The notes: a model not told the origin generated them from the sequence alone. A stretch of DNA of 45,297 bases from Chloroflexota bacterium (GCA_005882045.1 VBHO01000152.1:1-45297), one strand, 5' to 3'. Shown: positions 3,520 through 18,438, counted from the first letter of the stretch. Program-made: numbers and translations.

Positions 3520-4178
3520 CTGTCGGCCTCGATCAGACCTTTTCGAATCGCGTACTTCACCAGCTCGGTGCGGTCGTGCATACGCAGCTTCTTCATGATG
3601 TGATCGCGGTGTGTCTGGACGGTCTTGATGCTCAGGAAGAGCGTGTCGGCGATCTGCCGATTCGTCTTGCCTTCGGCGACTAATCGCAGGACCTCGCGCT
3701 CGCGATCGCTGAGCGGCTCGAAGGTTTCCCGTTCTGGCGCGCGCTGCAAGTAGTCCGAGACCAGCAAGCGCGCCACGGAGGGATACAGATATGGCTCGCC
3801 CTGGCTGGCTGCCTCGATGGCGGCGATCAGGTCCGAGGCCGCTGCTTTCTTGAGGACGTAACCTACGGCGCCCGCTTTCAGGGTTTGGAAGAAATATTCT
3901 TCGTTGTCGTGCGCGGTAAGTATCAGCACCTGGGTCTGCGGGCACAGGCGACGAATTTCGCGCGTGACCTCGATACCCGACATGTTCGGCATCGCCACGT
4001 CGACCACCGCCACGTCGGGACAGTTGGCTCGTGCCAATCGGATCGCCTCGCGGCCCTCGGTGGCTTCGGCAATCACCTGGATGTCACTCTGTCCATCGAT
4101 CACGGCGCGGATGCCGGCGCGCACGAGGTTGTGATCCTCGACCAGCATCACCTTGATCGTCTTGCGCTCAACCGGCAT
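3516..4178 (-). CDS. NarL/FixJ-family response regulator
   Basis: A 220-aa DNA-binding regulator. The receiver domain (about 8-125) has acidic residues Glu14/Asp15, phospho-acceptor Asp60 (VAVVDVAMPN), a Thr in LILTAHD and a Lys in YVLKKAA. The LuxR-type helix-turn-helix (about 155-215) reads LSDREREVLRLVAEGKTNRQIADTLFLSIKTVQTH. The ORF track starts 123 bp upstream, but that extension is arginine-rich read-through of the kinase gene. The ATG at 4178 begins MPVERKTIKVMLVEDH, which fits the family. It overlaps the kinase gene by 11 bp, indicating a coupled two-component operon. The divergence point is shared with no target operon, and the neighbouring RND pump is a possible but unproven target. 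Confidence 0.93.
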   Translation of the reverse strand: MPVERKTIKVMLVEDHNLVRAGIRAVIDGQSDIQVIAEATEGREAIRLARANCPDVAVVDVAMPNMSGIEVTREIRRLCPQTQVLILTAHDNEEYFFQTLKAGAVGYVLKKAAASDLIAAIEAASQGEPYLYPSVARLLVSDYLQRAPERETFEPLSDREREVLRLVAEGKTNRQIADTLFLSIKTVQTHRDHIMKKLRMHDRTELVKYAIRKGLIEADS

Positions 4179-5224: not shown

Positions 5225-5368
5225 GAGGCGGCCTGCCAATCGGTTTGGAGCCATTACGCATTCAGGTCTTCGCCTGATGCGCAGCACGTTAGCCGGCGCC
5301 CAGACTGGGTACAGACATAGCCCCTCCCCTCTTTTAGCGGGCCGCTCCCCCAGCGGCCCGCATTTTTT
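5225..5368 (+). ncRNA. Candidate small RNA or orphan leader ending in an intrinsic terminator
   Basis: The gap between the divergent kinase gene and DUF3090 contains two hairpins followed by a T-run on the + strand. The first is at 5257-5281 (CGCATTCAGG, loop tcttcg, CCTGATGCG with one bulged T). The second is the terminator listed separately. Between them is a C-rich single-stranded stretch (CCCCTCCCC), and the terminator loop is CCCCC. C-rich loops recall the actinobacterial 6C RNA, but I cannot run the covariance model. No promoter was located with confidence, so the 5' end is a guess. It could also be an attenuating leader of the DUF3090 gene. Confidence 0.33.
5337..5368 (+). terminator. 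Strong intrinsic terminator
   Basis: A perfect 10-bp stem GCGGGCCGCT / AGCGGCCCGC encloses a CCCCC loop and is followed by A and six T residues (5363-5368). The T-run is only on the + strand side. No annotated + strand gene ends here, since the kinase gene to the left is on the - strand. An unannotated + strand transcript must therefore stop at this point. Confidence 0.8.
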
Positions 5369-5412
5369 ATCCGGTCGCCCGGCACTCAAACGGGGTACGG
5401 GACAATAGAGCG

Positions 5413-5904
5413 ATGGCGTCGGAAAGTTTTGACTTCGACGAAGTGACCCGAGTGACCACCGGGGCCCTCGGTGAGCCGGGCAAGCGCGCCTTCTACCTCC
5501 AGGTGCGCACCGCGGCCGAGCTGGTCAGCCTCGCCATCGAGAAGGATCAGCTGCGGGCGCTGACCGAACGCTTGCAGGAAGTCTTCTCCCGGGTGCCGGT
5601 CCCGCCCGCGGGCAAGTTGCCGGACATGGCCCTCGAAGAACCGATCGCGCCCATCTGGCGGGTCGGCTTCATGACCCTCACCTACAGCCAGGATGAGAAG
5701 GCGTTCGAAGTCTCGCTGGTGGAGCTCGTCGACGAAGGTGATCAGCCGGCGACGGGTCACTTCCAGGCGAGCCTCGCCCAAATGCAAGCGCTCGCCGCTC
5801 ACGCCGCCGTCCTGATCAGCGCCGGCCGCCCGCCGTGCCCGATGTGCGGCGGACCCATCGATCACGATGGCGGCGTCTGTCCGCGGCTCAACGGACATCA
5901 CTAG
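5413..5904 (+). CDS. DUF3090 family protein with C-terminal zinc ribbon
   Basis: A 163-aa protein of the DUF3090 family, function unknown. The N-terminus SFDFDEVTRVTTGALGEPGKRAFYLQV and the EKDQLRALTERL segment are typical. The C-terminus carries CPMCGGPIDHDGGVCPRLNGHH, with three Cys plus His residues likely to bind zinc. In actinobacteria this family sits beside the SCO1664 family, and that pairing is kept here (next gene 2 bp downstream). ATG at 5413. No Shine-Dalgarno is obvious, and a weak -10-like GACAAT at 5401-5406 ends only 6 nt before the ATG, so a leaderless transcript is possible. The known neighbour context in actinobacteria includes mycothiol ligase genes, none of which appear here. 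Confidence 0.9.
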   Translation: MASESFDFDEVTRVTTGALGEPGKRAFYLQVRTAAELVSLAIEKDQLRALTERLQEVFSRVPVPPAGKLPDMALEEPIAPIWRVGFMTLTYSQDEKAFEVSLVELVDEGDQPATGHFQASLAQMQALAAHAAVLISAGRPPCPMCGGPIDHDGGVCPRLNGHH

Positions 5905-5906
5905 TC

Positions 5907-6710
5907 ATGGCGCAAGCCACACCGTCTCTGGATGGCGACGCGCAGGAGCGGCTGCTGCGCGAGGGCCGCATCAAGGCACGCGGCCTGATGCCCGATTGCT
6001 CGAACTACACGTACCTCGCGCACGTTCGCGGCGCGGAAGGCGCGGAGACGCTCGGCGTCTATAAACCGGCGCAGGGTGAGACGCCGCTCGATGATTTCCC
6101 CGATGGCACGCTGGGTAAGCGGGAGGTGGCCGCCTACCTGGTGAGCGCCGCGCTCGATTGGCAGGTCGTGCCTCTCACGGTCTATCGGACGCAGGGTCCG
6201 CTGGGACCTGGGTCTCTACAGCAGTTTATCGTCGCCGACATCAGCGAGCATTACTTCACGCTGATGCCCGAGCGCGCGGCCGACTTTCGAACGATGGCGG
6301 CCTTCGACGTCATCGTCAACAACGCCGACCGTAAGAGCGGCCATTGCCTGCTCGACGGCGACGGTCACATCTGGGGCGTCGACAACGGCCTGACGTTCCA
6401 CCCCCTCCCAAAGCTGCGAACCGTCATCTGGGAGTTCGCCGGCGAGGAGGTTGCGGCAACGCTGCGCCGCGATGCGCAACGTCTCGCGGACGAGCTCGTC
6501 GCCGGCGAGGGGTGTGCGGCAACGCTGCGCCGCGATGCGCAACGGCTCGCGGACGAGCTCGTCGCCGGCGAGGGGTGGGTGAAGAGCCTGCTGCAGCTGA
6601 TCTCGGGGGCCGAGGTTCGCGCGCTCGCGCAGCGCGCGCGGCGCCTGGCCGATGAGGGACGCTACCCGGAGCCCAGCTCGCGCTGGGCTTACCCGTGGCC
6701 CCTGATTTGA
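5907..6710 (+). CDS. SCO1664-family (PI3/4-kinase-like) protein with internal duplication
   Basis: 267 aa from ATG 5907. The longer track ORF runs back into DUF3090 in another frame and is not used. GVYKPAQGETPLDDFPDGTLGKREVAAYLVS, DVIVNNADRKSGHCL and WGVDNGLTFH resemble the Lys, Asp/Asn and Asp-x-Gly positions of PI3/4-kinase-like folds in the SCO1664 family. The biochemical activity is not known to me. Between the last core motif and the C-terminal helix, 21 residues (AATLRRDAQRLADELVAGEG plus one) occur twice in tandem, encoded by a 63-bp direct repeat. The duplication adds a helix and keeps the frame. The 3' end overlaps the convergent ctaG gene by 22 bp. Confidence 0.88.
   Translation: MAQATPSLDGDAQERLLREGRIKARGLMPDCSNYTYLAHVRGAEGAETLGVYKPAQGETPLDDFPDGTLGKREVAAYLVSAALDWQVVPLTVYRTQGPLGPGSLQQFIVADISEHYFTLMPERAADFRTMAAFDVIVNNADRKSGHCLLDGDGHIWGVDNGLTFHPLPKLRTVIWEFAGEEVAATLRRDAQRLADELVAGEGCAATLRRDAQRLADELVAGEGWVKSLLQLISGAEVRALAQRARRLADEGRYPEPSSRWAYPWPLI
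6453..6578 (+). repeat. 63-bp tandem duplication inside the SCO1664-family gene
   Basis: Copies at 6453-6515 and 6516-6578 start GCGGCAACGCTGCGCCGC and differ at about two positions (aacgtctcg versus aacggctcg, and the last base pair of the unit). The length is a multiple of three, so the reading frame is preserved. Near-identity, including third-codon positions, points to a recent event. Confidence 0.95.
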
Positions 6711-7423
6711 GTTGGGGTCGGAACCGGTAGGCGGAGACGTCCGGCCTCGGCGGGCAGCTCGTCGTCGAGCCGCTCGAGCCAGGCGGGGGCCCCGGGTGGA
6801 AGATCGCCGCGCTGGGCCGCCCGGTCGTCACGATCCGGCGGCTCGGGCTGCGGGGTGAGCAGTCGCCAGAGGATCACGAAGGTGCCGGTGATGAGCGCGA
6901 ATTTCGCCGTGCCGAAGAGCAGCAGGCCGGCGACCTGCTGATCCTCGAGTGAGCCAAAAGCCTGATAGAAGACGTGATGCGATAGCGCCAGCGTCAGGCC
7001 CGGGATCGTGGGCGGTACCCCGGCGACCATCAAGCAGCCAATCTTCGCAATGGCGCTCAGACCATTGCGACTCACGATCGGCGACCAAAAGAGGAATCCG
7101 CCAAGGATGAAGATCGCCTGGGTCGCCTCGCGGAACGCCGCATTCTTCACCGCGAAGTCGACGACAGCCGGGTATTGCGACCCGAAGAGCACCAGGTTGA
7201 GAGCCGCGATGCCCGCGACCGGGTGCATCCAGGATCCAGCGCGGTCGGGCAGTAACGGACTCGCGCCATAGGCCAGCAGCGGGATGACCAGGGCCAGGAG
7301 CAGCATCTCCTCGAGCATGTGCAGGCTCAGTCGCTGGTCGGCCAGCCGGCTCAGGGGTGGCAAGAGGGCCGCAAGCGACAGCAGCGATCCGGCGTAAAGG
7401 GCCGCGCGTTGACGCCCCGCCAT
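6689..7423 (-). CDS. ctaG: CtaG-like cytochrome c oxidase assembly membrane protein
   Basis: A 244-aa polytopic protein of the Caa3_CtaG family, thought to help assemble the copper-containing heme-copper oxidase. Several hydrophobic segments are visible (about 9-25, 38-55, 68-85, 100-118, 128-150, 172-195). LSLHMLEEMLLLALVIPLLAYGAS is the family hallmark of TM2 (typically HMxQHMLL). FILGGFLFWSPI and LALSHHVFYQAFG follow. The charged C-terminus is disordered. ATG near 7423 (MAGRQRAALYAG). It is five bases downstream of the phospholipase-D-like gene, so probably one transcript. No oxidase subunit genes are in the window. Confidence 0.82.
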   Translation of the reverse strand: MAGRQRAALYAGSLLSLAALLPPLSRLADQRLSLHMLEEMLLLALVIPLLAYGASPLLPDRAGSWMHPVAGIAALNLVLFGSQYPAVVDFAVKNAAFREATQAIFILGGFLFWSPIVSRNGLSAIAKIGCLMVAGVPPTIPGLTLALSHHVFYQAFGSLEDQQVAGLLLFGTAKFALITGTFVILWRLLTPQPEPPDRDDRAAQRGDLPPGAPAWLERLDDELPAEAGRLRLPVPTPTQIRGHG

Positions 7424-7428
7424 GGTTC

Positions 7429-8511
7429 CTATTTTGCCGCAGCGGCCGGGGTCCTTGCGTAGCGCGCGAAGACCGCGTCCACGAATTCGACAAACCGGTC
7501 CGCCAGCGGTGCACTGTCGAGCGTCAGCAGGTTTTCCGCATTGTCCTCACCGGCATGGGACAGGTTGTAGCTGCCGGTGAAGACGGTGTTATCGACCACC
7601 GTGATCTTGGCGTGCATGAAGTCGTGCACGCTGGTCGGCGTGTAGGGCGTGGTGACCTTGGAGGCGAAGGGGAAGGCGGTGCTCACCGCCTGGAAGGCTG
7701 GTCCCTTCCAGGTCGCGTGCGGGTCGACCCGCCACTGGCCGAGCACTTCCGCCATCTGCGTGCGGTCATAGACACCCTTGAAGTCGGGATGCGGTCTTTT
7801 CGCCAGGTCGCCCAGCGTCCCCAGGATTACCCCGGCCGTGATCACCGGCGAACAGACGCGGATGCGGCGGCTTGCATGCGCGATCCTATTGGCGATGACA
7901 TGCGCCATCTGGCGTCCGCGGCCGGGCGCAAAGTAGACGTGCGCCTTGACCGCGCCGTCCTGGTAGGCAACGGGGACGCCGGCGAGATCGTACTTCCCGC
8001 TGCCATCGATGCGGCCCGTTTGCCAGAGCTCGCCGAAGTTCCTCGCGTACTCAGCCGCCAATGCCGTGGACGGGATCTTGAGGATCACGTTTTCCTCGCG
8101 CGTCCACGAATCGTTCGTCCAGTTCATGGAGCCGGTCCACACCGTTGCCGCATCCGTCGCCGCATCACGCACGATGTACTTGTGGTGCATCAGGTCGGGA
8201 ATGCCGGAGACGGGTTTGGTCGACACGCCCAGGCTGGCGATGAACGCCGTGTCGGCCTGCGAAGGCGGCGGCACCGGGATCGGGTTGGGGAAGTCCACGT
8301 TGTAGAGCAGGCGGATCGCGACGCCGCGACCGGCGGCGGCCATCACCGCGGCCCGCACCTGGTCAGCCGGTGAGCCGCTCAGATTCAGATCGTAAATCGC
8401 GATGTCAAGCGTGCGTTGCGCGGCGCCGAGGAAGGCGGCGAGTTCTGCGGCCACCTGCTCAGCCGGCTGGGCGCCGTCCTGCAGGAAGGTCACCTCGAGC
8501 GATGCCGTCAC
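7429..8511 (-). CDS. Phospholipase D-like protein with two HKD motifs
   Basis: A 360-aa member of the PLD superfamily (phosphatidyl transfer or nuclease chemistry). Both catalytic HxKx4D motifs are intact: HHKYIVRD followed by GSMNWT near the middle, and HAKITVVDN followed by GSYNLS near the C-terminus. A two-motif single chain forms one active site. There is no signal peptide (MTASLEVTFLQDGAQPAEQ), so it looks cytosolic, which makes a nuclease or lipid-handling role equally open. The start is GTG at 8511, overlapping the upstream LOG gene stop as GTGA, a sign of translational coupling. Substrate not predictable from sequence alone. Confidence 0.88.
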   Translation of the reverse strand: MTASLEVTFLQDGAQPAEQVAAELAAFLGAAQRTLDIAIYDLNLSGSPADQVRAAVMAAAGRGVAIRLLYNVDFPNPIPVPPPSQADTAFIASLGVSTKPVSGIPDLMHHKYIVRDAATDAATVWTGSMNWTNDSWTREENVILKIPSTALAAEYARNFGELWQTGRIDGSGKYDLAGVPVAYQDGAVKAHVYFAPGRGRQMAHVIANRIAHASRRIRVCSPVITAGVILGTLGDLAKRPHPDFKGVYDRTQMAEVLGQWRVDPHATWKGPAFQAVSTAFPFASKVTTPYTPTSVHDFMHAKITVVDNTVFTGSYNLSHAGEDNAENLLTLDSAPLADRFVEFVDAVFARYARTPAAAAK

Positions 8512-9296
8512 TGGGCGTCGCTCTTCTTCGGTTCCGCCCGGTCCTTCGGCTGGGCTTCCAACACCTTCCGCTGGTAGTACTGCTGCACGATATCGGCGGC
8601 TTCCTGGATGTCGTCCGTGACGACCATCAGGTCGAGGTCCTCGGCTGAGATCTTGCCCTCAGCCAGCACACGCTCTCGAATCCACTGTTGCAGCCCGGCC
8701 CAGTAGGCCGAGCCGAACATGATCACCGGGAAGTGGACGATTTTCCCCGTTTGAATCAGCGTCAATGCCTCGAACAGCTCGTCCATGGTGCCGAAGCCGC
8801 CCGGGAAGATGACGAAGGCCTCGGCGTACTTGACGAACATCGTTTTGCGCACGAAGAAGTAGTGGAACTCGATGCCGAGGTTCACGTACTCGTTGAGACC
8901 CTGCTCGAACGGCAGTTCGATGTTGAGGCCGACAGAGAGCCCACGACCTTCACGCGCGCCCATATTCGCCGCCTCCATCGTGCCCGGCCCGCCGCCGGTG
9001 ATGATGGCGAAACCCCGGCGGGCAAGCTCGCCGGCAAGGGCGCGCGCGGCATCGTACATCGGATCGGGCGGACGGACGCGGGCCGAGCCAAAGAAGGTAA
9101 CCGCGGGACCGACGGTGGCCAGCGCATCGAATCCGGCCACGAACTCGGCCTGGATGCGCAGCACGCGCCAGGGGTCGCTTTCGAGGAACTCTGGAGCGTT
9201 CTCGGGACGCTCCAGCAGCTGACGGTCTTCGATCTTCCGCTCCACGCCACGCCGGACGATGCCTCCGGTGCGCTGCTCTCCGGGTTCCTTCGCCAT
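8508..9296 (-). CDS. LOG-family protein (TIGR00730, nucleotide 5'-monophosphate phosphoribohydrolase type)
   Basis: A 262-aa Rossmann-like protein. Key family motifs are present: FFGSARV, ITGGGPGTMEAANMGAREG and the catalytic PGGFGTMDELFEALT. Family members release a base from nucleoside monophosphates (cytokinin activation in plants). Many bacterial members have undefined substrates. I chose ATG at 9296 (MAKEPGEQRTGG). The longer track ORF crosses the divergent kinase gene start and is low-complexity Ser/Thr. The extended N-terminus before WRVLRIQAEFVAGFDAL is typical of the longer subgroup. Overlaps the phospholipase-D-like gene by 4 bp and starts 49 bp from the divergent histidine kinase. 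Confidence 0.9.
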   Translation of the reverse strand: MAKEPGEQRTGGIVRRGVERKIEDRQLLERPENAPEFLESDPWRVLRIQAEFVAGFDALATVGPAVTFFGSARVRPPDPMYDAARALAGELARRGFAIITGGGPGTMEAANMGAREGRGLSVGLNIELPFEQGLNEYVNLGIEFHYFFVRKTMFVKYAEAFVIFPGGFGTMDELFEALTLIQTGKIVHFPVIMFGSAYWAGLQQWIRERVLAEGKISAEDLDLMVVTDDIQEAADIVQQYYQRKVLEAQPKDRAEPKKSDAQ

Positions 9297-9345
9297 GGCC
9301 TCGCTTACTCTAACCCGTTGCCTTTTGCGCCAGACTTGTGGCGTG

Positions 9346-10491
9346 ATGAGACGCGACCAACTCGAAGAGATCGTCGTTGCGGTGGCCGCGCTGGTTCTCC
9401 CGGCGGTGCTGACCGCCATCCTGCTGCAGACGCACTCGCCGCAGCGGGAATACGTCTTCATCTATATGGGGGTGGTCGCCGTGATCGCGGTGGCCCGCGG
9501 GCTCTGGCCCGCGCTGCTGGCGGCGGCGGTCAGCTTCTTGCTGGTCGATTACTACTTTGTCCCGCCGATGCACACCCTGACGGTCGCCGATGAACAGGAC
9601 CTCGTCAACCTGGCCATCTTCTTCGGAACGGCGGGCGTCGTCGGCTTCACGGCCGGGCGGCGCCGCCAGGCGCAGATCCGGGCGCAGGCACTCGCCGGGG
9701 AGCTTCGCAACGTGAACGCCGAGCTGGTGCGGCTCAACCGCGACCAGGCCGCCGCTGCCCAGGCGGCCGTCCGGCTGGCGCGGACCGAGCAGCAAGTGCA
9801 GCTGCTGCAGCAGGCGGAGCAGGATCTGCGCGACCTGCTCGCGACCCTCTCCCACGAGCTGCGTACGCCGATCGGCACCATCCTGACCGACAGCACCAAC
9901 ATGCTGCGGACGCAGGACATGAACACCTCGGTCCGCTACCGCATCGAGGGGATCGCCGCCGAGGCGCGCCGACTGAATCGGTTACTGGCCGACATGCTCA
10001 GCCTGGGGCGTATCGAAAGCGGCGCCCTCCACCTGACGCTTGAGCCGGTGCAGGTCGGCGACGCCGTTGCGGCGGCCGCCGAGCGCCTGAAGCGGACGGC
10101 GCCGGATCGCACGGTCACCTGGGACCAAAAGGAAGCCGGCGTTAGCGCGCTGGCCGATTGGGACAGCCTGGGCCAGATTTTTGACAACCTGCTCGACAAC
10201 GCCAATCGCTTCGCGCCTCCCGGAACGCCGATCAGCGTGCGCGTCAGCCAGGAGAATCCGGGCCAGGTCACCATCCGCGTACTCGACCACGGTCCCGGCG
10301 TGCCGGCCGCCATGCGCGACCGGCTGTTCAACCGCTTCGTGAAAGGCCCGTCCGACGATGGTGACGGGTCCGGCCTCGGGCTGGCGATCACCCGCGGACT
10401 GGTGGAGGCACACGCCGGGAGCATCGCGTTGGAAGACGGCGAGCCCGGCGAGACGACGTTTCGCTTTACGATCCCGAAGTCGGAGTCATAG
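9346..10491 (+). CDS. Sensor histidine kinase with DUF4118 membrane domain (C-terminal half of KdpD)
   Basis: 381 aa. The N-terminal four-helix membrane domain (about 12-105, IVVAVAALVLPAVLTAILL through FFGTAGVVGFTAGRR) is DUF4118, the transmembrane module of KdpD. A coiled coil (about 110-165) leads to HisKA with ATLSHELRTPIGTILTDSTNML, then N-box DNLLDNANRFAPPG, G1 VLDHGPGVP and G2 GSGLGLAITRGLVEAHAG. The KdpD N-terminal sensory domains are missing from this chain and are encoded on the opposite strand just downstream. The two genes converge and overlap by 26 bp. ATG 9346 was preferred over an in-frame GTG at 9343. The 29-residue upstream extension in the track overlaps the LOG gene. Confidence 0.9.
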   Translation: MRRDQLEEIVVAVAALVLPAVLTAILLQTHSPQREYVFIYMGVVAVIAVARGLWPALLAAAVSFLLVDYYFVPPMHTLTVADEQDLVNLAIFFGTAGVVGFTAGRRRQAQIRAQALAGELRNVNAELVRLNRDQAAAAQAAVRLARTEQQVQLLQQAEQDLRDLLATLSHELRTPIGTILTDSTNMLRTQDMNTSVRYRIEGIAAEARRLNRLLADMLSLGRIESGALHLTLEPVQVGDAVAAAAERLKRTAPDRTVTWDQKEAGVSALADWDSLGQIFDNLLDNANRFAPPGTPISVRVSQENPGQVTIRVLDHGPGVPAAMRDRLFNRFVKGPSDDGDGSGLGLAITRGLVEAHAGSIALEDGEPGETTFRFTIPKSES

Positions 10492-12649
10492 CCGCTTTCG
10501 CCGGTGGCACGGGCTGCTCCCGCCGCAGGATGTGCACGTCGATGTCCTCGAGCAAGCGTACCAACGTCGACGTCGTTCGCCACGGCCGCCAACGGTGGTG
10601 CGGGCGCCCCAGCACGACCTCGGTATTGAGCGTTTTGCGCAGGTAGCCGGCGAGCGTCGCCGCCACGTTTCGCCCGTAGAGGCTGACGAACTCGCCCTGG
10701 TCGCGGTGCACCAGGGCGGCGTACTCGCCGAGCCAGCGGCGCTGCGGCTCCGAGAGTCGCGGCGGACGAACGCTGACCACCGTGAACTGGCCGGATGTGC
10801 GCGAGGCGAAGCTTGCCATCCGCTGGATGATCGGCTCCATCCCCGGCCGCGGCGGGATGCAGGCGACCAGGCGCGGTCGGGCTTCCCACGGCTCCTCGAT
10901 CTTGCGCTCGCGCATGTATGCGACCAGGCGGCGGTCGGTGTGCTCGGCGATCAGTCGGAACGCCATCTCCCGCAGGGCCGACAGGATCTGCGGGCGGAAC
11001 TCGGCCTGCAGCGCCCGCGCAGCGTCGGCCGGGGTCATGATCTCGCCCCGGCGCAACCGTTCGAGTAAAACGGCCGGGGTGACGTCGACGATCTCCAGCT
11101 CGTCGATGCGGGTCAAGACATCATCCGACAGGACGGAGCCTGGGGCGCGCTCCTTGAGCAGCGGCGCATAGCTCCCGCGGACGCTGGCCAGGTCGAGCAG
11201 GTGGAGCGTGCCCAGCACCGTGATGCCGGCGTCGACCAGCCTGGCAAGGGACTCAGCCCGGACGCGTCCCTGCGTATCGAGGCCGTTGAGCTCATCGATG
11301 ACCGCCACCTCGGGATTCCGGCTCAGCAACGCCTCGACGTTGAGGCGGTCGTGCGCGGCAGGGGCATCTGGTCCGCCCAGGACTTCGAGGGTGGCCAGCC
11401 CGCTCGCCGGAACCCGCGCATTGATGGCGCCGACGACCACGTCGGCGCCACGCGACCGGCGCCGCCGCGCCTCATCGAGCATGGCGGTGGTCGTGCCCGA
11501 GCCATCGGCGTAACCGAGATAGACCCGGACGTCCGCACTCCGCCGGCCGGCACGCTGCTCAGCACGAAGCAGCTCCTCGGGCAGGCGGCGCTCCGGCCCG
11601 ACGTCGGACGGCGGCGTCACATGCTCAGGGGCGATGACGTGCAGGTCGATGTCCGCGAGCGAATCGACCAGCTGATCAGCCAGCGTTTTGCGCCAGCGAG
11701 ACCACAGACCAGCCTGGCGCGACTCTCCGATGAAAAGGTGGCGCACATTCGCCAGCTGGGCGGCCTCGATGATCCCTTTCGCGATGTCGGACCCGCCGAG
11801 CGACACGAATGAGCAACCCAGCTGGGCCGCGAGCCGCTGATAGCCCTCCATCTTCACGGCCCCGGCGGAGCCGACGATCACGACCATGCACAGCCCACCG
11901 AGGCGCCGGGCCAGCCGAGTGGCGCGGCGGATCAACGGCTCGGATTTGGCCGAGCCAGAAATCGCCACCAGCACGTCCTCAGCCGGGGCCAGCACCGCTC
12001 GCGAGGTTGCCATCGACTGGGCGACCAGTCGCAACGCGATCTCCCGCAGCGCCGCGAGGTTGCCGGGTCGGAAGAAGTTGGCCAGCGCGGTTTCGACCTT
12101 GTCCGGGCCGTAGATGTTGCCGTGCCGCATCCGCTTGCGCAGCGCCTCCGGTGAGATGTCGATGAACTGGATCTCGTCGGCGAGGTCCAGGACCCGGTCG
12201 GGCAAGGTTTCCCGCTGCACGATGCCCGTGATCTTCTCGACGACGTCGTTGACGCTTTCGACATGTTGCACGTTCAGCGTCGAGATGACGTCGATGCCGC
12301 CGTCACGCAGCCGCTCGACATCCTGCCAGCGTTTTTCATTTGTGGAGCCAGGCGCGTTGGTGTGGGCGAGCTCGTCGACCAGCGCGATTTTGGGCCGTCG
12401 CTTGAGCACTGCATCGAGATCCATCTCCTCGAGCACCGTTCCGCGATAGGGGACGCGCTTGCGCGGGATCAGCTCGAGGCCGGCGAGAAGCTCCTCGGTG
12501 CGGGCACGGCCATAGGTCTCGACGTAGGCGATAGCGACGTCCTCGCCGCGCTGCTTTCGCTCACGCGCCTCCCGGAGCATGGAAAACGTCTTGCCGGCGC
12601 CGGGCGTCGCGCCCAGGTAGACCTTGAGACGCCCGCGCGCCGATGCCAC
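10466..12649 (-). CDS. kdpD: KdpD N-terminal sensory protein with duplicated KdpD-Usp module and no kinase
   Basis: 727 aa. Module 1: KdpD domain (about 5-212) with Walker A GATPGAGKT (13-21) and IALVDELAHTN, then a Usp-like domain (about 224-342). Module 2 repeats the plan: KdpD domain (373-580) and Usp-like domain (591-715). Alignable pairs are VISTLNVQHVES with VLGTLHLLDLAS, and FFRPGNLAALREIALRLVAQ with EFRPQILSALREMAFRLIAE. In module 2 the Walker A becomes GYADGSGTT, replacing Lys20 by Thr386, so nucleotide binding there is probably lost. There is no transmembrane or kinase domain. KdpD normally senses potassium and turgor and, as I recall, binds cyclic di-AMP through Usp in some bacteria. 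GTG start at 12649, 30 bp after the KdpC relic. Confidence 0.9.
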   Translation of the reverse strand: MASARGRLKVYLGATPGAGKTFSMLREARERKQRGEDVAIAYVETYGRARTEELLAGLELIPRKRVPYRGTVLEEMDLDAVLKRRPKIALVDELAHTNAPGSTNEKRWQDVERLRDGGIDVISTLNVQHVESVNDVVEKITGIVQRETLPDRVLDLADEIQFIDISPEALRKRMRHGNIYGPDKVETALANFFRPGNLAALREIALRLVAQSMATSRAVLAPAEDVLVAISGSAKSEPLIRRATRLARRLGGLCMVVIVGSAGAVKMEGYQRLAAQLGCSFVSLGGSDIAKGIIEAAQLANVRHLFIGESRQAGLWSRWRKTLADQLVDSLADIDLHVIAPEHVTPPSDVGPERRLPEELLRAEQRAGRRSADVRVYLGYADGSGTTTAMLDEARRRRSRGADVVVGAINARVPASGLATLEVLGGPDAPAAHDRLNVEALLSRNPEVAVIDELNGLDTQGRVRAESLARLVDAGITVLGTLHLLDLASVRGSYAPLLKERAPGSVLSDDVLTRIDELEIVDVTPAVLLERLRRGEIMTPADAARALQAEFRPQILSALREMAFRLIAEHTDRRLVAYMRERKIEEPWEARPRLVACIPPRPGMEPIIQRMASFASRTSGQFTVVSVRPPRLSEPQRRWLGEYAALVHRDQGEFVSLYGRNVAATLAGYLRKTLNTEVVLGRPHHRWRPWRTTSTLVRLLEDIDVHILRREQPVPPAKAAMTPTSGS

Positions 12650-12678
12650 TATCGATTCATGTTAGGGCGAGATTTCTC

Positions 12679-12798
12679 TTAGCCGGCTTCGCCCGCGTCC
12701 AGGGCCATGTTGAGCGCCAGCACGTTCACGTGCGGTTCGCCGAGGACTCCGAGGATACGACCCTGGAGCAAGCCGAGCATCCAAACATCGAGCGGCAC
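12679..12798 (-). pseudogene. kdpC: Relic of the KdpC C-terminus
   Basis: On the - strand this gap reads MLGLLQGRILGVLGEPHVNVLALNMALDAGEAG before TAA at 12679-12681. KdpC, the potassium-ATPase assembly subunit, ends with a GRxLGxLGEPxVNVLxLNxALD signature, and the match is close. An in-frame TAG lies four codons upstream of the GTG at 12798. Only about 35-40 of the usual ~190 residues remain, and KdpF, KdpA and KdpB are absent. The order kdpC then kdpD is the normal operon order, so the piece looks like the scar of a lost kdpFABC. It is too short for the ORF track. The alternative, a functional micropeptide, is less likely. Confidence 0.72.
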
Positions 12799-12872
12799 GA
12801 TTTGAGCCTATGCCCGGCTACGTCAACGCTGCATCAACAATCGCGGCTTGCGCCTACGGACTCTGAGACCGG

Positions 12873-13565
12873 TCAGCGTTTGATCGCCGGGCCGAAGCGA
12901 TAGCCGCGGCCCGGCACCGTCTGGATCACTTCCGGATGCGCCGGATCATGCTCCAGCTTGAGCCGCAACCGCTGGATGAAGACGCGGAGGTAGTGCCGTT
13001 CGTCGCCGTAGGCCGGCCCCCAGACGCGGTGGAGGAGCGTGCGGTAGTCCATCACCTCGTGCTGGTGACGGGCGAGCTCGGCTAACAGGAGATATTCGGT
13101 GGCCGAGAGCCGTACTTCTTGATCGCCGCGTAAGACCGAATGGCTTTGCAGGTCGACGGTGACATCTAGGTCCCGGACGACCAGGGGCTGCTGGGTCGGA
13201 GGTTGGGCACGGCGCAGCACGGCGCGGATGCGGGCCAGCAGCTCGTCCGAGCCGAACGGCTTGGCCAGGTAATCATCTGCTCCCATGTCAAGCGCCCGCA
13301 CCTTGTCCGCCTGGTCGCCGCGGGCGCTGATCATGATCACCGACGGGACCCGCCGACCCTCGAGGCTGGAGAGCACGTGCCAGCCGTCGACGAATGGCAG
13401 TCCGATGTCGAGCAGGACGATGTCGAACGTCTTGGCTCTCAATGCCTGGACGCCGGTGGACCCGTCTGCCGCCTGCTCGACCTCGAAACCGCCCGATTGG
13501 AGCGCTCCGACTAACACGGTCCTCAACGCACGGTCGTCCTCGACGACCAGAATGCGCCCGGCCAC
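12873..13565 (-). CDS. OmpR-family response regulator, KdpE-like
   Basis: 230 aa. Receiver domain (about 3-118) with Glu9-Asp10-Asp11, phospho-acceptor Asp53 (VLLDIGLPF), Ser in VIMISARG and Lys in DDYLAKPFG. The winged-helix DNA-binding domain (about 135-228) has VRLSATEYLLLAELARH and the KdpE-like end HYLRVFIQRLRLKLEHDPAHPEVIQTVPGRGYRFG. GTG start at 13565, eight bases after the methyltransferase gene. Position next to the KdpC relic and the KdpD-like gene supports a Kdp-type origin. With no potassium pump locally, its present target is unknown. Confidence 0.88.
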   Translation of the reverse strand: MAGRILVVEDDRALRTVLVGALQSGGFEVEQAADGSTGVQALRAKTFDIVLLDIGLPFVDGWHVLSSLEGRRVPSVIMISARGDQADKVRALDMGADDYLAKPFGSDELLARIRAVLRRAQPPTQQPLVVRDLDVTVDLQSHSVLRGDQEVRLSATEYLLLAELARHQHEVMDYRTLLHRVWGPAYGDERHYLRVFIQRLRLKLEHDPAHPEVIQTVPGRGYRFGPAIKR

Positions 13566-13573
13566 CGGCCGCC

Positions 13574-14230
13574 CTACCTCGAGGCCACGACGTAGAAGCT
13601 CGGGCTGTCGCGAAGCTCAGCATCCGGCTGTCCGAACATCCGCTGGAGCCGAAGGCCGGCGGCCGTCAGCCAGTTGTCCATCTCCTCCGGCCAGACGATG
13701 GCGACCTCGGCGTGCTGCGTGATGGTCCGTCCGTTGGGAAGCCGGTAATCGACCTCGAGGCGCGCCCCATTTCCATCGAACGCCCGCACCCTGACCCCAT
13801 CGCCGCCGCCCGCCCGCAGCCAGTGGGGGTTGGCGAGCTCGAAGGCGAGGGTCCCGCCATCGGCGAGGTGATCGGCAGCTCGGCGCAACCGCTCGACCAG
13901 GTAGAGGATGTTGGAGGGCGCGATGACGAGGTCGAAGCGCCGGCCGAGCTTGAGGTCCTCGATCCGCGATTGGATCAACTCGGTCCGCGCGAGCCGGTCC
14001 CGCAGTCGTTCGAGCATGCCAGGATGGCTATCGACCCCAACCAGCTCGATGCCGGCCGCGCTCAGGGGCACCGCGACCCGCCCAGTGCCGACGCCGAGAT
14101 AGAGCACTGGCGGGGTGGCGCCTTGAGCCAGCTCGAGCCAGGGCCACAGATCGGTCTCGTCGGGGAGCTGCGCGTACAGCTCGGCGAAACCGGCGTCGGG
14201 CTGCGACGGGTCGTCGCGCACGCTGGCCAT
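13574..14230 (-). CDS. Class I SAM-dependent methyltransferase
   Basis: 218 aa. Motif I VLYLGVGTGRVAVPLSAAG, followed by VGVDSHPGMLERLRDRL and FDLVIAPSNILYLVERLRRAADHLADGGTLAFEL, defines a Rossmann-fold methyltransferase. The substrate is unknown. I chose ATG 14230 (MASVRDDPSQPDAGFAELYAQ) because the track start lies inside the aminotransferase gene. It is 13 bp downstream of the aminotransferase and 8 bp upstream of the response regulator. It could ride at the end of the pyrimidine operon or be part of a shared transcript with the regulator genes. Confidence 0.85.
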   Translation of the reverse strand: MASVRDDPSQPDAGFAELYAQLPDETDLWPWLELAQGATPPVLYLGVGTGRVAVPLSAAGIELVGVDSHPGMLERLRDRLARTELIQSRIEDLKLGRRFDLVIAPSNILYLVERLRRAADHLADGGTLAFELANPHWLRAGGGDGVRVRAFDGNGARLEVDYRLPNGRTITQHAEVAIVWPEEMDNWLTAAGLRLQRMFGQPDAELRDSPSFYVVASR

Positions 14231-14243
14231 GGGCCGGCCTCGG

Positions 14244-15584
14244 CTAGGCGATGGCCTCGTCGGCGATGTCGAGCGCCTTGTCGATGATGGCAAAGCCCTC
14301 GGCCAGCTCGCCCTCGTTGATGCATAGGGGCGGGTTGGTCATGATCGTGTGCCAGCGGACGAAGGTATAGAGGCCGTGCTCGCGGAGGTACTTCCCGACC
14401 GCCTTCATCGGCTCCGATGTCCCGTTGAAAGGCGCTAGCGGCTCCATCGTCTTGCGGTCTTTGACCAACTCCAGGATGCCGAACAGGCCGATGCCGCGTG
14501 CCAACCCGACCGATGGGTGTTTCCGCTTGAGCTCCTGGTGGTGGCGGGTCATCACCTCGCCCATCCGGCGCGCGTTGCCGATCATGTCGTCTTCCTCATA
14601 GGCCTGGATGGTGCCCAACGCCGTGGCGCAAGCCAGCGGGTGACTGTTGTAGGTGAGGCCGCCGTAGAAAACGTTCTTGTCGAAATACTCGGCGATCTTG
14701 GGTCGCATTCCCACGGCACCAAGCGGGACATAGCTGCTCGTCAATCCCTTGGCCATGGTCATGATGTCGGGGACCACGTTCCAGTGGTTGACCGCGAACC
14801 ACTCGCCGGTCCGGCCAAAGCCCGACATGATCTCGTCGCAGACCATCAGGATGCCGTAGCGATCGCAGAGCGCGCGCACGCCCTGGAGATAGCCATCGGG
14901 CGGGATCAGGACGCCGTTGGTGCCGGTGACCGTTTCCAGGAAGAAGGCGGCGATCGTCTTGGGGCCCTCGAGCTCGATCGTCTCTTCGAGGTATTCCAGG
15001 GATTTTTCTGCGCTGTCGTCCTCGCGTTGCGGGCCGTGATAAGGGTCGAGGACGTGCACCACGCCCGACGTGCCCAGGTCGTTGGCCCACCGCCTCGGGT
15101 CGCCGGTCAACGCCATCGCGCCCGCGGTTGCCCCGTGGTAGGAACGGTATCGAGCGATGATCTTGTGGCGGCCGGTCACCGTCCGGGCCAGCTTGATCGC
15201 GTTCTCATTTGCCTCCGCACCCCCGAGCGTGAAGAACACCTTGTCGAGGTCGCCGGGCATCAGCTCGGCCAGCTTCTTGCCCAATAGTGCTCGCGGCTCG
15301 TGCGCCATGAAGGGGTTGGCGTATGCAAGCTTTTCCGCCTGGCGCTTGATCGCGTCGATGATGCGCGGGTCACCGTGCCCGGCGTTGACGCTCATCAACT
15401 GGCTGTTGAAGTCGATGTATCGCTTGCCCTCGGGGGTGTAGAAGTAGACCCCCTTGGCATGGTCGACCGCGATCGGATCGACCGCCGATTGCGCCGTCCA
15501 TTCGTAGAGCGTGTACTGGCGGCAGAGGGCGACGATCTCCTCGCCGCTCAGCACATGCGGGCGCGCGCTCGTCTCTAAAGCCAC
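14244..15584 (-). CDS. Class III PLP-dependent aminotransferase (beta-alanine/omega-amino acid type)
   Basis: 446 aa, normal length for the class. Visible features: FTLGGAEANENAIKLAR (cofactor phosphate region), YRSYHGATAGAMALTGDPRRW, LMVCDEIMSGFGRTGEWFA with the PLP-ring Asp, and the Schiff-base Lys279 in MTMAKGLTSSYVPLGAV. Within this operon the expected reaction is beta-alanine plus an oxoacid giving malonate semialdehyde. A role with taurine or another omega-amine is possible on family grounds. GTG start at 15584 lies 10 bp inside the dehydrogenase gene, which indicates coupled translation. It passes its product to that dehydrogenase. Confidence 0.9.
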   Translation of the reverse strand: MALETSARPHVLSGEEIVALCRQYTLYEWTAQSAVDPIAVDHAKGVYFYTPEGKRYIDFNSQLMSVNAGHGDPRIIDAIKRQAEKLAYANPFMAHEPRALLGKKLAELMPGDLDKVFFTLGGAEANENAIKLARTVTGRHKIIARYRSYHGATAGAMALTGDPRRWANDLGTSGVVHVLDPYHGPQREDDSAEKSLEYLEETIELEGPKTIAAFFLETVTGTNGVLIPPDGYLQGVRALCDRYGILMVCDEIMSGFGRTGEWFAVNHWNVVPDIMTMAKGLTSSYVPLGAVGMRPKIAEYFDKNVFYGGLTYNSHPLACATALGTIQAYEEDDMIGNARRMGEVMTRHHQELKRKHPSVGLARGIGLFGILELVKDRKTMEPLAPFNGTSEPMKAVGKYLREHGLYTFVRWHTIMTNPPLCINEGELAEGFAIIDKALDIADEAIA

Positions 15585-17023
15585 CGAGTGGTCACGACTT
15601 TATGTCGGGTGTAGAAGCGGATGCTGTCCTGACCGGTGGCATGGAGGTCGCCGAAGAACGAATTCTTCCAGCCGGTGAAGGGGAGGAAAGCCATCGGCGC
15701 CGCGACGCCGATGTTGACGCCCAGCATGCCGGCCTGCGCCCGGCGCTTGAATTCCCTGGCGTACTTGCCCGAGCCGGTAAAAATCGAGGCCATGTTGCCG
15801 TACGTACTGGAGTTGAGCACCTTGAGGGCTTCATCGATGTCCGAGGCCCGAACCACGGACAGCACCGGTCCGAAGAGCTCGTCCTTCCAGATCTTCATGT
15901 TGGGCGTGACGCGATCAAAGATCGTCGGCCCAAGGAAGAAGCCATCCTTCTGATCCACCTCGCGACCATCGGAAATGAGTTGCGCCCCCTCCGCCTCGGC
16001 CCCATCGATGTACTCGATCAGCTTCTGCTTGCGCTCGCCTCGGATCACCGGCCCGAGCGTGGTCTTGGGATCGGTGCCGGGGCCGACTTTGAGTTTCGCC
16101 GCATCGTTGGCCAGCTCGCGCACCAGGGCATCGCCGATCTTGCCAACGCCGACCGCGACGCTCCCCGCCAGGCAGCGCTGGCCGGCATTCCCGAACGCCG
16201 ACGAGATGACATGCGGCGCGGAGAGCTCGAGGTCGGCATCGTCCATGACCAGGATGTGGTTCTTGGCGCCGCCGAGTGCCTGGACCCGCTTACCGTTGGC
16301 CGCAGCTGTCGCATAGATATAGGCGGCCACCGTCGCCGAGCCGACGAAGGAGATCGCCGAAATGTCCGGGTGCTTCAGCAGCTGATTGACGGCGTCGTTG
16401 GCACCATGCACCACGTTGAAGACGCCCTCGGGCAGGCCGGCCTCATCGAGCAGCTCCGCGATGCGCATGGCGGAAAGCGGCGTCAGCTGAGACGGCTTCA
16501 GAACGAAGGTGTTGCCGGTCACGATCGCGACCGGGATCATCCACATCGGCACCATGTTGGGGAAGTTGAAGGGCGTGATGCCGGCGACGACACCTACCGG
16601 AAATCGGGTCAACTCCTCATCGATGCCTCTGGCGATCTGATCGAGGTTGTGGCCCATCATCAGGGTTGGGGCACCGCAGGCGAAGTCGATCACCTCGATG
16701 GCGCGCTTGACCTCGCCGCGCGACTCGTCGAGCGTCTTGCCGTTCTCCTGGGTGACGATGGCGGAGAGCTCATCGATGTGCTTGTCGAAGAGCGCCTTGA
16801 AGCGGAACATAACCTGCGCACGTTCCGGCACCGGGGTTTCGCTCCAGGTGGGGAAGGCCTTCTTGGCCGCGGCGACCGCCTCGTCGATTTCTTCGCGCGT
16901 CGAGTGCGGAAGGCTGGCGATCGTCTGGCCGGTCGCCGGGTTCGGGATCGGGTCGACCTTCTGCGCGCTGGAGTCCCGGAACTTCCCGCCGATAAAGCTC
17001 TGAACGTTCTTGGTGGCAATCAT
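15575..17023 (-). CDS. mmsA: CoA-acylating (methyl)malonate-semialdehyde dehydrogenase
   Basis: 482 aa. MMSDH signature features are clear: FIGGKFRDSSAQKVDPIPNPATG at the N-terminus, GVVAGITPFNFPNMVPMWMIPVAI, ISFVGSATVAAYIY, and the catalytic Cys in FGNAGQRCLAGSVAV. The subfamily uses CoA rather than water to release the acyl enzyme, giving acetyl-CoA from malonate semialdehyde or propionyl-CoA from methylmalonate semialdehyde, with loss of CO2. In this operon malonate semialdehyde from beta-alanine is the likely substrate. ATG at 17023 overlaps the dihydropyrimidinase stop as ATGA. Confidence 0.94.
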   Translation of the reverse strand: MIATKNVQSFIGGKFRDSSAQKVDPIPNPATGQTIASLPHSTREEIDEAVAAAKKAFPTWSETPVPERAQVMFRFKALFDKHIDELSAIVTQENGKTLDESRGEVKRAIEVIDFACGAPTLMMGHNLDQIARGIDEELTRFPVGVVAGITPFNFPNMVPMWMIPVAIVTGNTFVLKPSQLTPLSAMRIAELLDEAGLPEGVFNVVHGANDAVNQLLKHPDISAISFVGSATVAAYIYATAAANGKRVQALGGAKNHILVMDDADLELSAPHVISSAFGNAGQRCLAGSVAVGVGKIGDALVRELANDAAKLKVGPGTDPKTTLGPVIRGERKQKLIEYIDGAEAEGAQLISDGREVDQKDGFFLGPTIFDRVTPNMKIWKDELFGPVLSVVRASDIDEALKVLNSSTYGNMASIFTGSGKYAREFKRRAQAGMLGVNIGVAAPMAFLPFTGWKNSFFGDLHATGQDSIRFYTRHKVVTTRWL

Positions 17024-18438
17024 GATCTGGCTCCTACCGGGCTTGGCTCACTGGTCGGGACCTTGTGGAATGGCGAACGTCGCAGGAACTGGCCGGCGCC
17101 CTTTGTCCCCTGGAACTTTCCGTCACGAACCAGCACGTTGCCACGCTGCATCACGACCTCCGGCAGGCCCTTGACCGTCATGCCCTCGTAGCAACTGTAG
17201 TCCACGTTCATGTGATGGGTCTTCGCCGAGAGCGTCCGTTCCACCCTCGGGTTGAAGATGACGATGTCGGCGTCACTCCCCGGGGCGATAGTGCCCTTAC
17301 GAGGGAAGAGCCCGAACATCTTGGCGGGCGCGGTCGCGACCAGTTCGACGAACCGGTTGAGCGTGATCCGGCCGGAATTCACCCCGCCATGGAAGATCAG
17401 CGTAAAGCGGTCTTCCACGCCGGGCAGGCCGTTGGGGATCTTCGAGAAGTCGCCACGCCCCAGCTCCTTCTGGCCCTTGAAATGGAACGGACAGTGGTCG
17501 GTCGCGACCAGCTGCAGGTCGTCCTGGAGAAGACCCTTCCAGAGCTCGTCGTGATGCGACGGCAGCCGCAGCGGCGGTGAGCAGACGTACTTCGCGCCCT
17601 CGAAGCCAGGTCGGCCCAGGTCGGCCAGGCTCAAGTAGAGGTACTGCGGGCAGGTCTCGGCAAAGGTGGGGGCGCCATCATCGCGCGCCGCGCGGACGGC
17701 GTCGAGCGCATCTTTCGAGCTCAAGTGCACGATATAGACGGCGACCTCGGCGAGGCGCGACAGCGCGATCGCCCGGCTGGTGGCCTCCCCCTCCATCGTG
17801 GCCGGCCGGGTCAGGCCGTGGTTGATCGGATCACCTTTGCCTTCGGCGAGGTAGCGCTGCACCAGCACGTCGATCGCGCCGCCGTTCTCGGCGTGCATCA
17901 TGATCAGGCCGCCGTTCTCCGCCGTACGGCTCATCGCCTTGAAGATCGACGCGTCATCGAGCATGAAGACGCCCGGGTAGGCCATGAAAAGCTTGAAAGA
18001 AGGCACGCCCTCGGTCACAAGCGCATCCATCTCCTTGAGGATCGAATCATTGATCTCGCGCACGATCATGTGAAAGCCATAGTCGATATGCGCCTTGCCC
18101 TCGGCTTTCTTGTGCCACTGGTCGAGGCCCTGGCGCAGCGTCTGGCCGAAGGTCTGCACCGCGAAGTCGACGATGGTGGTCGTGCCGCCCCAGGCGGCAG
18201 CGGCCGTTCCGGTGGCGAAGTCGTCGGAGGCGAAGGTGCCACCGAAGGGCAACTCCATATGGGTGTGGACATCGATCGCCCCCGGCATCACGTAGCGATT
18301 TTCCGCATCGATCACCTGGTCGGCCTTGGCCTCGAGTCCGCTCCCCATCGCCACGACCTTCTCGCCCTCGATCAGCACGTCGGTCTTGTTGGTGTCGCTC
18401 GCGGTCACCACCGTGCCATTCTTGATCAGCGTCCTCAT
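17020..18438 (-). CDS. hydA: Dihydropyrimidinase / D-hydantoinase
   Basis: 472 aa, amidohydrolase superfamily. Metal ligands are seen in DVHTHMELPFGG (His58, His60), the carboxylated Lys149 in SFKLFMAYPG, His in MMHAENGG and VHLSSKDAL, and Asp in VATDHCPFHFKGQKELG. NGLPGVEDRF and MNVDYSCYEG are substrate-region motifs of the hydantoinase/dihydropyrimidinase group. It opens dihydrouracil or 5-substituted hydantoins to N-carbamoyl amino acids. ATG at 18438 overlaps the upstream beta-ureidopropionase stop, and its own stop overlaps mmsA. This tight coupling with the N-carbamoyl-hydrolase favours the pyrimidine route over a hydantoin-only role. Confidence 0.94.
   Translation of the reverse strand: MRTLIKNGTVVTASDTNKTDVLIEGEKVVAMGSGLEAKADQVIDAENRYVMPGAIDVHTHMELPFGGTFASDDFATGTAAAAWGGTTTIVDFAVQTFGQTLRQGLDQWHKKAEGKAHIDYGFHMIVREINDSILKEMDALVTEGVPSFKLFMAYPGVFMLDDASIFKAMSRTAENGGLIMMHAENGGAIDVLVQRYLAEGKGDPINHGLTRPATMEGEATSRAIALSRLAEVAVYIVHLSSKDALDAVRAARDDGAPTFAETCPQYLYLSLADLGRPGFEGAKYVCSPPLRLPSHHDELWKGLLQDDLQLVATDHCPFHFKGQKELGRGDFSKIPNGLPGVEDRFTLIFHGGVNSGRITLNRFVELVATAPAKMFGLFPRKGTIAPGSDADIVIFNPRVERTLSAKTHHMNVDYSCYEGMTVKGLPEVVMQRGNVLVRDGKFQGTKGAGQFLRRSPFHKVPTSEPSPVGARS

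What the first reader, a model, noticed from the sequence alone, without database searches (positions are those of the whole stretch)
10466..12649. Duplicated KdpD-Usp module with a dead Walker A in the second copy
Residues 5-342 and 373-715 are two alignable copies. The first keeps GATPGAGKT. The second has GYADGSGTT, with Lys replaced by Thr, while keeping the fold landmarks. A kinase-free tandem sensor could act as a ligand-binding (for example cyclic di-AMP) scaffold. I know of no description of this architecture.
Basis: partly seen in the sequence, partly recalled or inferred. Interest (0 to 1): 0.72.

Follow-up and report, generated by a model that had tools for sequence, protein, structure and literature searches.

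The report
Tandem KdpD kinase with dead half
In a class of uncultured soil bacteria the protein thought to brake the Kdp potassium pump is doubled, with one intact kinase half and one worn-out half that evolution has kept, and in this particular genome the pump itself has been cut out of the operon while the doubled brake gene remains.

Summary
ORF 10466-12649(-) carries two KdpD-Usp modules (PF02702 twice). The halves are 31% identical, and the second lacks the Walker A lysine (GYADGSGTT). "Kinase-free" is wrong: the KdpD domain is an atypical serine kinase (PMC11018627), and copy 1 keeps the whole catalytic set. I read the protein as a kinase-pseudokinase fusion.

It is not a one-off. It is typically the 3' gene of kdpFABC operons in Ca. 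Dormibacteria. A tree puts all first copies in one clade and all second copies in another, so one old duplication. Every second copy lost the adenine-stacking aromatic and nearly all the Walker B glutamate (this genus keeps it). The Walker A lysine is gone in 27/27 copies of three families but kept in 9/10 of a fourth. Both halves are under purifying selection.

New here: in this genome kdpFABC is gone by one ~4.5-kb deletion. A 39-codon scar ORF (kdpF start fused in frame to kdpC end, 12679-12798) lies directly upstream; regulator, tandem gene and histidine kinase remain.

Likely function in relatives: inhibitory phosphorylation of KdpB at the conserved TGES serine, with copy 2 as regulatory or docking half. 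Here it is a relic or has another target. Cyclic di-AMP binding is weakly supported, least for copy 2.

The parts
10466..12649 (-). Tandem KdpD-Usp / KdpD-Usp gene (727 aa, GTG start)
   Evidence: 85% identical full-length homologue in same genus
12014..12637 (-). Copy 1 KdpD domain (atypical serine kinase domain), catalytic residues intact
   Evidence: PF02702 315 bits; residue table
12587..12613 (-). Walker A of copy 1, GATPGAGKT (res. 13-21)
11624..11977 (-). Usp1 domain (about res. 225-342)
   Evidence: PF00582 19.9 bits, below cutoff; AF2 fold; blastp of halves
10940..11533 (-). Copy 2 KdpD domain (pseudokinase-like)
   Evidence: PF02702 133 bits; residue table
11489..11515 (-). Degenerate Walker A of copy 2, GYADGSGTT (res. 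379-387)
10505..10882 (-). Usp2 domain (about res. 590-715), lacks the SxS c-di-AMP residues
   Evidence: blastp of halves; AF2 fold
12679..12798 (-). Scar ORF of 39 codons: first 11 codons of kdpF fused in frame to last 28 codons of kdpC; marks a ~4484-bp deletion of kdpFABC (junction 12765/12766)
   Evidence: blastn against L065 4114-4188 and 8673-12479; junction sequences; Pfam KdpC E=5.3e-6; PF02669 at 12697-12765; KdpC tails and KdpF
12873..13565 (-). OmpR-type response regulator (KdpE-like); lies upstream of kdpA in relatives G016 and G013
   Evidence: synteny
9259..10491 (+). DUF4118-HisKA-HATPase histidine kinase (KdpD C-terminal-half type), convergent, 26-bp overlap with the tandem gene
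   Evidence: kinase next to the tandem in relatives

Best explanation
The protein is a fused pair of KdpD-Usp units that arose by one old duplication in Ca. Dormibacteria. Copy 1 is a working atypical serine kinase of the KdpD type. In relatives that still have the pump it most likely phosphorylates the conserved TGES serine of KdpB (E. coli S162) to shut the pump off when potassium is plentiful. Copy 2 has lost residues needed to bind ATP and transfer phosphate and is kept as a pseudokinase half: an intramolecular partner that positions or regulates copy 1, or docks it to the pump or to the separate histidine kinase. In this genome kdpFABC was removed by a single deletion that fused the kdpF start in frame to the kdpC end and left the regulatory genes. 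The tandem therefore lacks its normal target here and is either a recent relic or serves another substrate. Shown: domains, residue losses, single origin, operon context, purifying selection, deletion scar. Inferred: kinase activity, KdpB as substrate, the role of copy 2.
For: Two KdpD domains. Copy 1 keeps the E. coli catalytic set G-K-T/D109/E110/R190 with F or Y at W39 in nearly all rows; mutating the Walker A, D109, E110 or the W39/R190 pair abolishes or nearly abolishes activity in E. coli (PMC11018627). Copy 2 has no aromatic at position 39 in any of 37 rows, D-D instead of D-E in 35 of 37 (not the window or G016), and no Walker A Lys in 27/27 rows of families f1-f3, while 9/10 rows of f4 keep it. 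Tree: copy 1 one clade (97), copy 2 one clade (99), f1-f3 copy 2 one clade (97). Order kdpA-kdpB-kdpC-tandem with a convergent kinase of the KdpD-C type in many f1-f3 loci. KdpB keeps AITGES in all 26 loci read. dN/dS of W vs G016: KdpD1 0.09, KdpD2 0.11; four other pairs 0.05-0.22 for either copy. Deletion scar; KdpA and KdpB not found in the genome. Confident overall model, pTM 0.86. In some f3 genomes the two copies are separate genes overlapping by 4 nt, so each half can be its own polypeptide.
Against: No biochemical data exist for any Dormibacteria protein. Window and G016 copy 2 still have D-E at Walker B. In f4 copy 2 still has GKT, so it may bind nucleotide there. Usp1 lacks the full c-di-AMP motif, so the input signal is unknown. 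In this genome the KdpB substrate is missing, so the proposed reaction cannot take place here. The deletion rests on one MAG contig (genome 91% complete) without reads to confirm the junction.
Confidence: 0.62

Rival explanations
1. Copy 2 is a nucleotide or c-di-AMP sensor: its Usp2 (or a Walker A site emptied of ATP) binds a second messenger and switches copy 1. The tandem would be a two-site ligand receptor.
For: A diadenylate cyclase is present in 105 of 110 Dormibacteria genomes. The D. geothermalis KdpD-Usp kinase is stimulated by c-di-AMP (PMC11018627). The S. aureus Usp domain binds c-di-AMP (PMC8214093).
Against: Usp2 lacks both serines and the Asn of the binding motif in all 37 rows; Usp1 keeps the first serine mostly and never the Asn. 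The cyclase is equally common in Dormibacteria without the tandem.
Confidence: 0.15
2. Copy 2 is only a structural mate: a KdpD-Usp unit normally acts as a homodimer, and the fusion makes an obligate asymmetric dimer with one active site.
For: High pTM for the whole chain; fission into two coupled genes in f3; conserved residues unique to copy 2.
Against: No evidence was gathered on the oligomeric state of KdpD-Usp proteins; the tool returned no interface scores.
Confidence: 0.2
3. In this genome the gene is a relic: the pump was deleted and the tandem is on its way to loss, with no current function.
For: kdpFABC deleted; 13 other genomes of the same genus have no match to the tandem and 13 of 15 genomes of the genus, this one included, have no KdpA; the start is GTG and the N terminus is shorter than in G016.
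Against: The ORF is intact over 727 codons, dN/dS is low in both halves, and its branch is not clearly longer than the pump-bearing G016 branch (0.074 vs 0.11 for copy 1, 0.12 vs 0.093 for copy 2). A recent deletion would give the same picture.
Confidence: 0.5
4. The missing pump is an assembly artefact of the MAG (strain mixture or chimera).
For: Single MAG, 269 contigs, no reads available.
Against: Both flanks are syntenic and collinear with G016; the junction joins kdpF and kdpC in frame; no shared repeat is seen at the two breakpoints in G016; no KdpA, and no KdpB closer than a 27%-identical other P-type ATPase, anywhere in the genome.
Confidence: 0.12

Closest known systems
KdpD-Usp 'short KdpD' atypical serine kinase (Deinococcus geothermalis KdpD, PMC11018627; NCBIfam NF038185 KdpD_non_kinase)
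   Same: KdpD domain plus Usp domain, no histidine kinase, encoded at the 3' end of the kdp operon; copy 1 keeps the catalytic residues; the genomes encode diadenylate cyclase
   Different: Two modules in one chain, the second catalytically degraded; neither Usp carries the full c-di-AMP motif; here the pump genes are deleted
Split Kdp regulation of Deinococcus radiodurans and Anabaena (PMC5716572)
   Same: KdpD-N in the pump operon; separate sensor kinase resembling the KdpD C-terminal half and a response regulator, in opposite orientation to the pump operon
   Different: There KdpD-N is single copy; here it is a tandem with a dead half
E. coli KdpD (full-length serine and histidine kinase)
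   Same: N-terminal KdpD and Usp modules homologous; copy 1 matches G-K-T, D109, E110, R190
   Different: E. coli is one chain with TM, GAF and HK; no duplication
Kinase-pseudokinase tandems such as eukaryotic JAK (general knowledge, not tested)
   Same: Active domain and dead duplicate in one chain, the dead one maintained
   Different: Unrelated fold and chemistry; an analogy only

Membership tests
KdpD-Usp atypical serine kinase (ASK) | PF02702 KdpD domain | tested here: met
   two stretches, 6.5e-133
KdpD-Usp atypical serine kinase (ASK) | Walker A G-X5-GKT | tested here: met
   copy 1 met; copy 2 not met, GYADGSGTT
KdpD-Usp atypical serine kinase (ASK) | Walker B Asp-Glu (E. coli D109/E110) | tested here: met
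   copy 1 D92/E93; window copy 2 also D-E, but D-D in 35 of 37 copy-2 rows
KdpD-Usp atypical serine kinase (ASK) | Aromatic/Arg adenine clamp (W39/R190) | tested here: met
   copy 1 F22/R173; copy 2 has T at the aromatic position, Arg kept (R531)
KdpD-Usp atypical serine kinase (ASK) | Phosphorylates KdpB Ser162 | not testable with these tools
   needs biochemistry; TGES is present in KdpB of relatives, KdpB not found in this genome
KdpD-Usp atypical serine kinase (ASK) | Encoded with kdpFABC | tested here: met
   in relatives; in the window only the kdpF-kdpC scar remains
c-di-AMP-binding KdpD Usp subfamily (7ji4) | (A/G/C)xSxSx2N plus Tyr/Phe | tested here: not met
   Usp1 has A,S,S only; Usp2 lacks S,S,N
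NCBIfam NF038185 KdpD_non_kinase | score above curated cutoff of 550 bits | tested here: not met
   465 bits, two stretches
Full-length KdpD sensor histidine kinase (PRK10490) | TM/GAF/HisKA/HATPase in the same chain | tested here: not met
   no such domains in the tandem; DUF4118, HisKA and HATPase lie on the separate gene 9259-10491

The most novel reading that the evidence does not exclude
A bacterial serine kinase-pseudokinase fusion, kept across one class, in which a catalytically dead KdpD half controls the live half; and in this lineage the module has outlived its pump and acts on a different substrate.
Probability: 0.15. Interest if true: 0.75.

Novelty: new variant of a known kind. 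Interest (0 to 1): 0.5.

Why it matters
The KdpD domain was recognised as a serine kinase only in 2024, and how its activity is controlled is open. A lineage that keeps one live and one dead copy side by side is a natural experiment. It offers a stepwise series (Walker A lysine kept in both copies in one family, lost from the second copy in three others, copies split into two genes in some) for asking what the non-catalytic half does. The clean loss of the pump with retention of its regulators is a second experiment, on how regulatory genes fare once their target is gone.

Tried and rejected
Chance resemblance of the halves: rejected (E=7e-40, two Pfam hits). Recent duplication in this genome: rejected, the copies form two clades with largely matching subgroups. 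Copy 2 as a decaying half: rejected, dN/dS 0.05-0.20 for copy 2 or its domains across pairs. Pump elsewhere in the genome: KdpA none; KdpC only the scar plus one sub-threshold stretch; best KdpB match 27% over part. Other K+ uptake: no TrkH or Kup found in this genome or G016, so the uptake route stays unknown. Paper searches for KdpD with Dormibacter, pseudokinase, or duplication in Chloroflexi gave no description of the tandem; supplementary tables of PMC11018627 could not be read, so a mention there is not excluded. Dating the scar: the kdpC tail differs little from relatives (its Leu before GEP occurs in 2 of 13 other tails found, Phe in 11), so it gives no clear sign of decay and cannot date the deletion.

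Full report
OBSERVATION. The ORF 10466-12649(-) is real and contains two KdpD-Usp modules. Pfam finds PF02702 twice, at window 12014-12637 and 10940-11533. The two halves align end to end at 31% identity, E=7e-40. AlphaFold on an alignment of 27 tandem proteins gives pLDDT 85.5 and pTM 0.86; Foldseek matches the KdpD N-domain crystal structure 2r8r (TMt 0.95) and the KdpD Usp/c-di-AMP structure 7ji4.

WHERE IT COMES FROM. The window's genome belongs to a class whose named records are mostly Candidatus Dormi(i)bacterota. PF02702 is over the cutoff in 48 of 110 genomes of the class, and many carry a strong first copy (about 290-325 bits) followed by a weaker second copy (about 115-160 bits) in one frame. 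The fused second-copy family was seen only in this class at that sensitivity.

OPERON CONTEXT. In most f1-f3 relatives the tandem is the last gene after kdpA, kdpB and kdpC, often with a histidine kinase of the KdpD-C type convergent to it. In the f4 family it lies beside the operon in another orientation. KdpB keeps AITGES, which holds the E. coli S162 target, in all 26 loci where it was read. Genus g20 also holds an extra tandem away from kdpABC (L067, L093).

RESIDUES. E. coli needs the Walker A (G36/K37/T38 mutated together), D109, E110 and the W39/R190 pair for KdpB phosphorylation (PMC11018627). On an alignment with E. coli KdpD, copy 1 has K in every row that covers the motif, D-E in 36 of 37, and F or Y at 39 in nearly all. 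Copy 2 has no aromatic at 39, D-D in 35 of 37 (window and G016 D-E), no His of DELAH, R190 kept, and K replaced by T or A in all 27 rows of f1-f3. In f4, 9 of 10 rows keep K and one has R. So the adenine clamp and, mostly, the catalytic Glu are lost across the whole group, and the Walker lysine on one branch only.

HISTORY. The tree of 101 domain sequences (SH-aLRT support) places copy 1 as one clade (97), copy 2 as one clade (99) and f1-f3 copy 2 as one clade (97). This supports one duplication before the families split and one loss of the lysine. Copy 2 sits on long branches, so its exact parent is unsure. In f3 genomes L070 and L072 the copies are separate genes overlapping by 4 nt, a later fission by the tree. 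Both copies are under purifying selection: dN/dS in W vs G016 is 0.09 (KdpD1), 0.12 (Usp1), 0.11 (KdpD2) and 0.17 (Usp2), against 0.78 for the 27-codon linker; four other comparisons give 0.05-0.22 for either copy.

THE PUMP IS DELETED HERE. KdpA is absent from this genome but present in same-genus G016 and G013. G016 reads response regulator - kdpF - kdpA - kdpB - kdpC - tandem, then the convergent kinase. In the window, regulator, tandem and kinase stand in the same order without the pump. BLASTN joins window sequence to L065 4114-4188 and then to 8673 onward, so about 4484 bp (L065 4189-8672) are missing. The junction at 12765/12766 fuses the first 11 codons of kdpF (VPLDVWMLGLL; G016 VPLDIWMIGLL) in frame to the last 28 codons of kdpC (QGRILGVLGEPHVNVLALNMALDAGEAG), ORF 12679-12798. 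Pfam KdpC recognises the tail (E=5.3e-6). KdpB is not found beyond a 27%-identical stretch of another P-type ATPase. TrkH and Kup families are also not found. The branch to the window is not clearly longer than the branch to G016, so there is no sign yet of decay of the tandem, but a recent deletion would look the same.

FUNCTION. Best reading: copy 1 is a serine kinase brake on KdpFABC in relatives, and copy 2 is a pseudokinase-type partner. Activity, substrate and the role of copy 2 are inferred. A c-di-AMP input is possible, since a diadenylate cyclase is present in 105 of 110 genomes and c-di-AMP stimulates a short KdpD from Deinococcus, but the published binding motif is incomplete in Usp1 and absent in Usp2.

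KNOWN OR NEW. Short KdpD-Usp kinases, and ASK and HK on separate chains (noted as common in Chloroflexota), are known. I found no description of the tandem with a dead half in the searches made (the main text of PMC11018627 has no 'two KdpD' or 'duplicated'). I file it as a new variant of a known kind.

Noticed in passing
window 12679-12798 (-): In-frame kdpF-kdpC fusion ORF of 39 codons, the scar of a ~4.5-kb deletion of kdpFABC; regulators on both sides retained.
   Followed up: yes
L204 (G356:C2) 6516-7799 and 2644-3795: Another lineage of the same phylum has a normal KdpD-Usp gene after kdpC and, nearby, a second separate KdpD-Usp gene with GMCEGAGTT: a dead-Walker paralogue that looks independent.
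   Followed up: partly
L198 (G051:C65) 1177-2331 and 2405-3604: Two adjacent separate KdpD-Usp genes, both with intact GKT, downstream of kdpABC outside this class.
   Followed up: no
L085 (G427:C34) 5341-7563 and 12323-14485: Two tandem KdpD-Usp genes flank one kdpABC operon; the second is highly divergent and its copy 1 has D-D at Walker B.
   Followed up: no
L070 8821-11027, L072 3624-5812: The two copies are separate genes with a 4-nt overlap, a fission of the tandem.
   Followed up: partly
G000 and G016 whole genomes: No TrkH (PF02386) or Kup (PF02705) found; with Kdp deleted, the potassium uptake route of the window's genome is unknown.
   Followed up: partly
window 14244-18438 (-): Class III aminotransferase, methylmalonate-semialdehyde-type dehydrogenase and dihydropyrimidinase in a row, resembling a reductive pyrimidine degradation cluster.
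   Followed up: no
L067 8681-11101, L093 2202-4389: Genus g20 carries an extra tandem at a shared location away from any kdpABC gene; in L093 copy 2 is split between two overlapping ORFs, possibly a frameshift.
   Followed up: no
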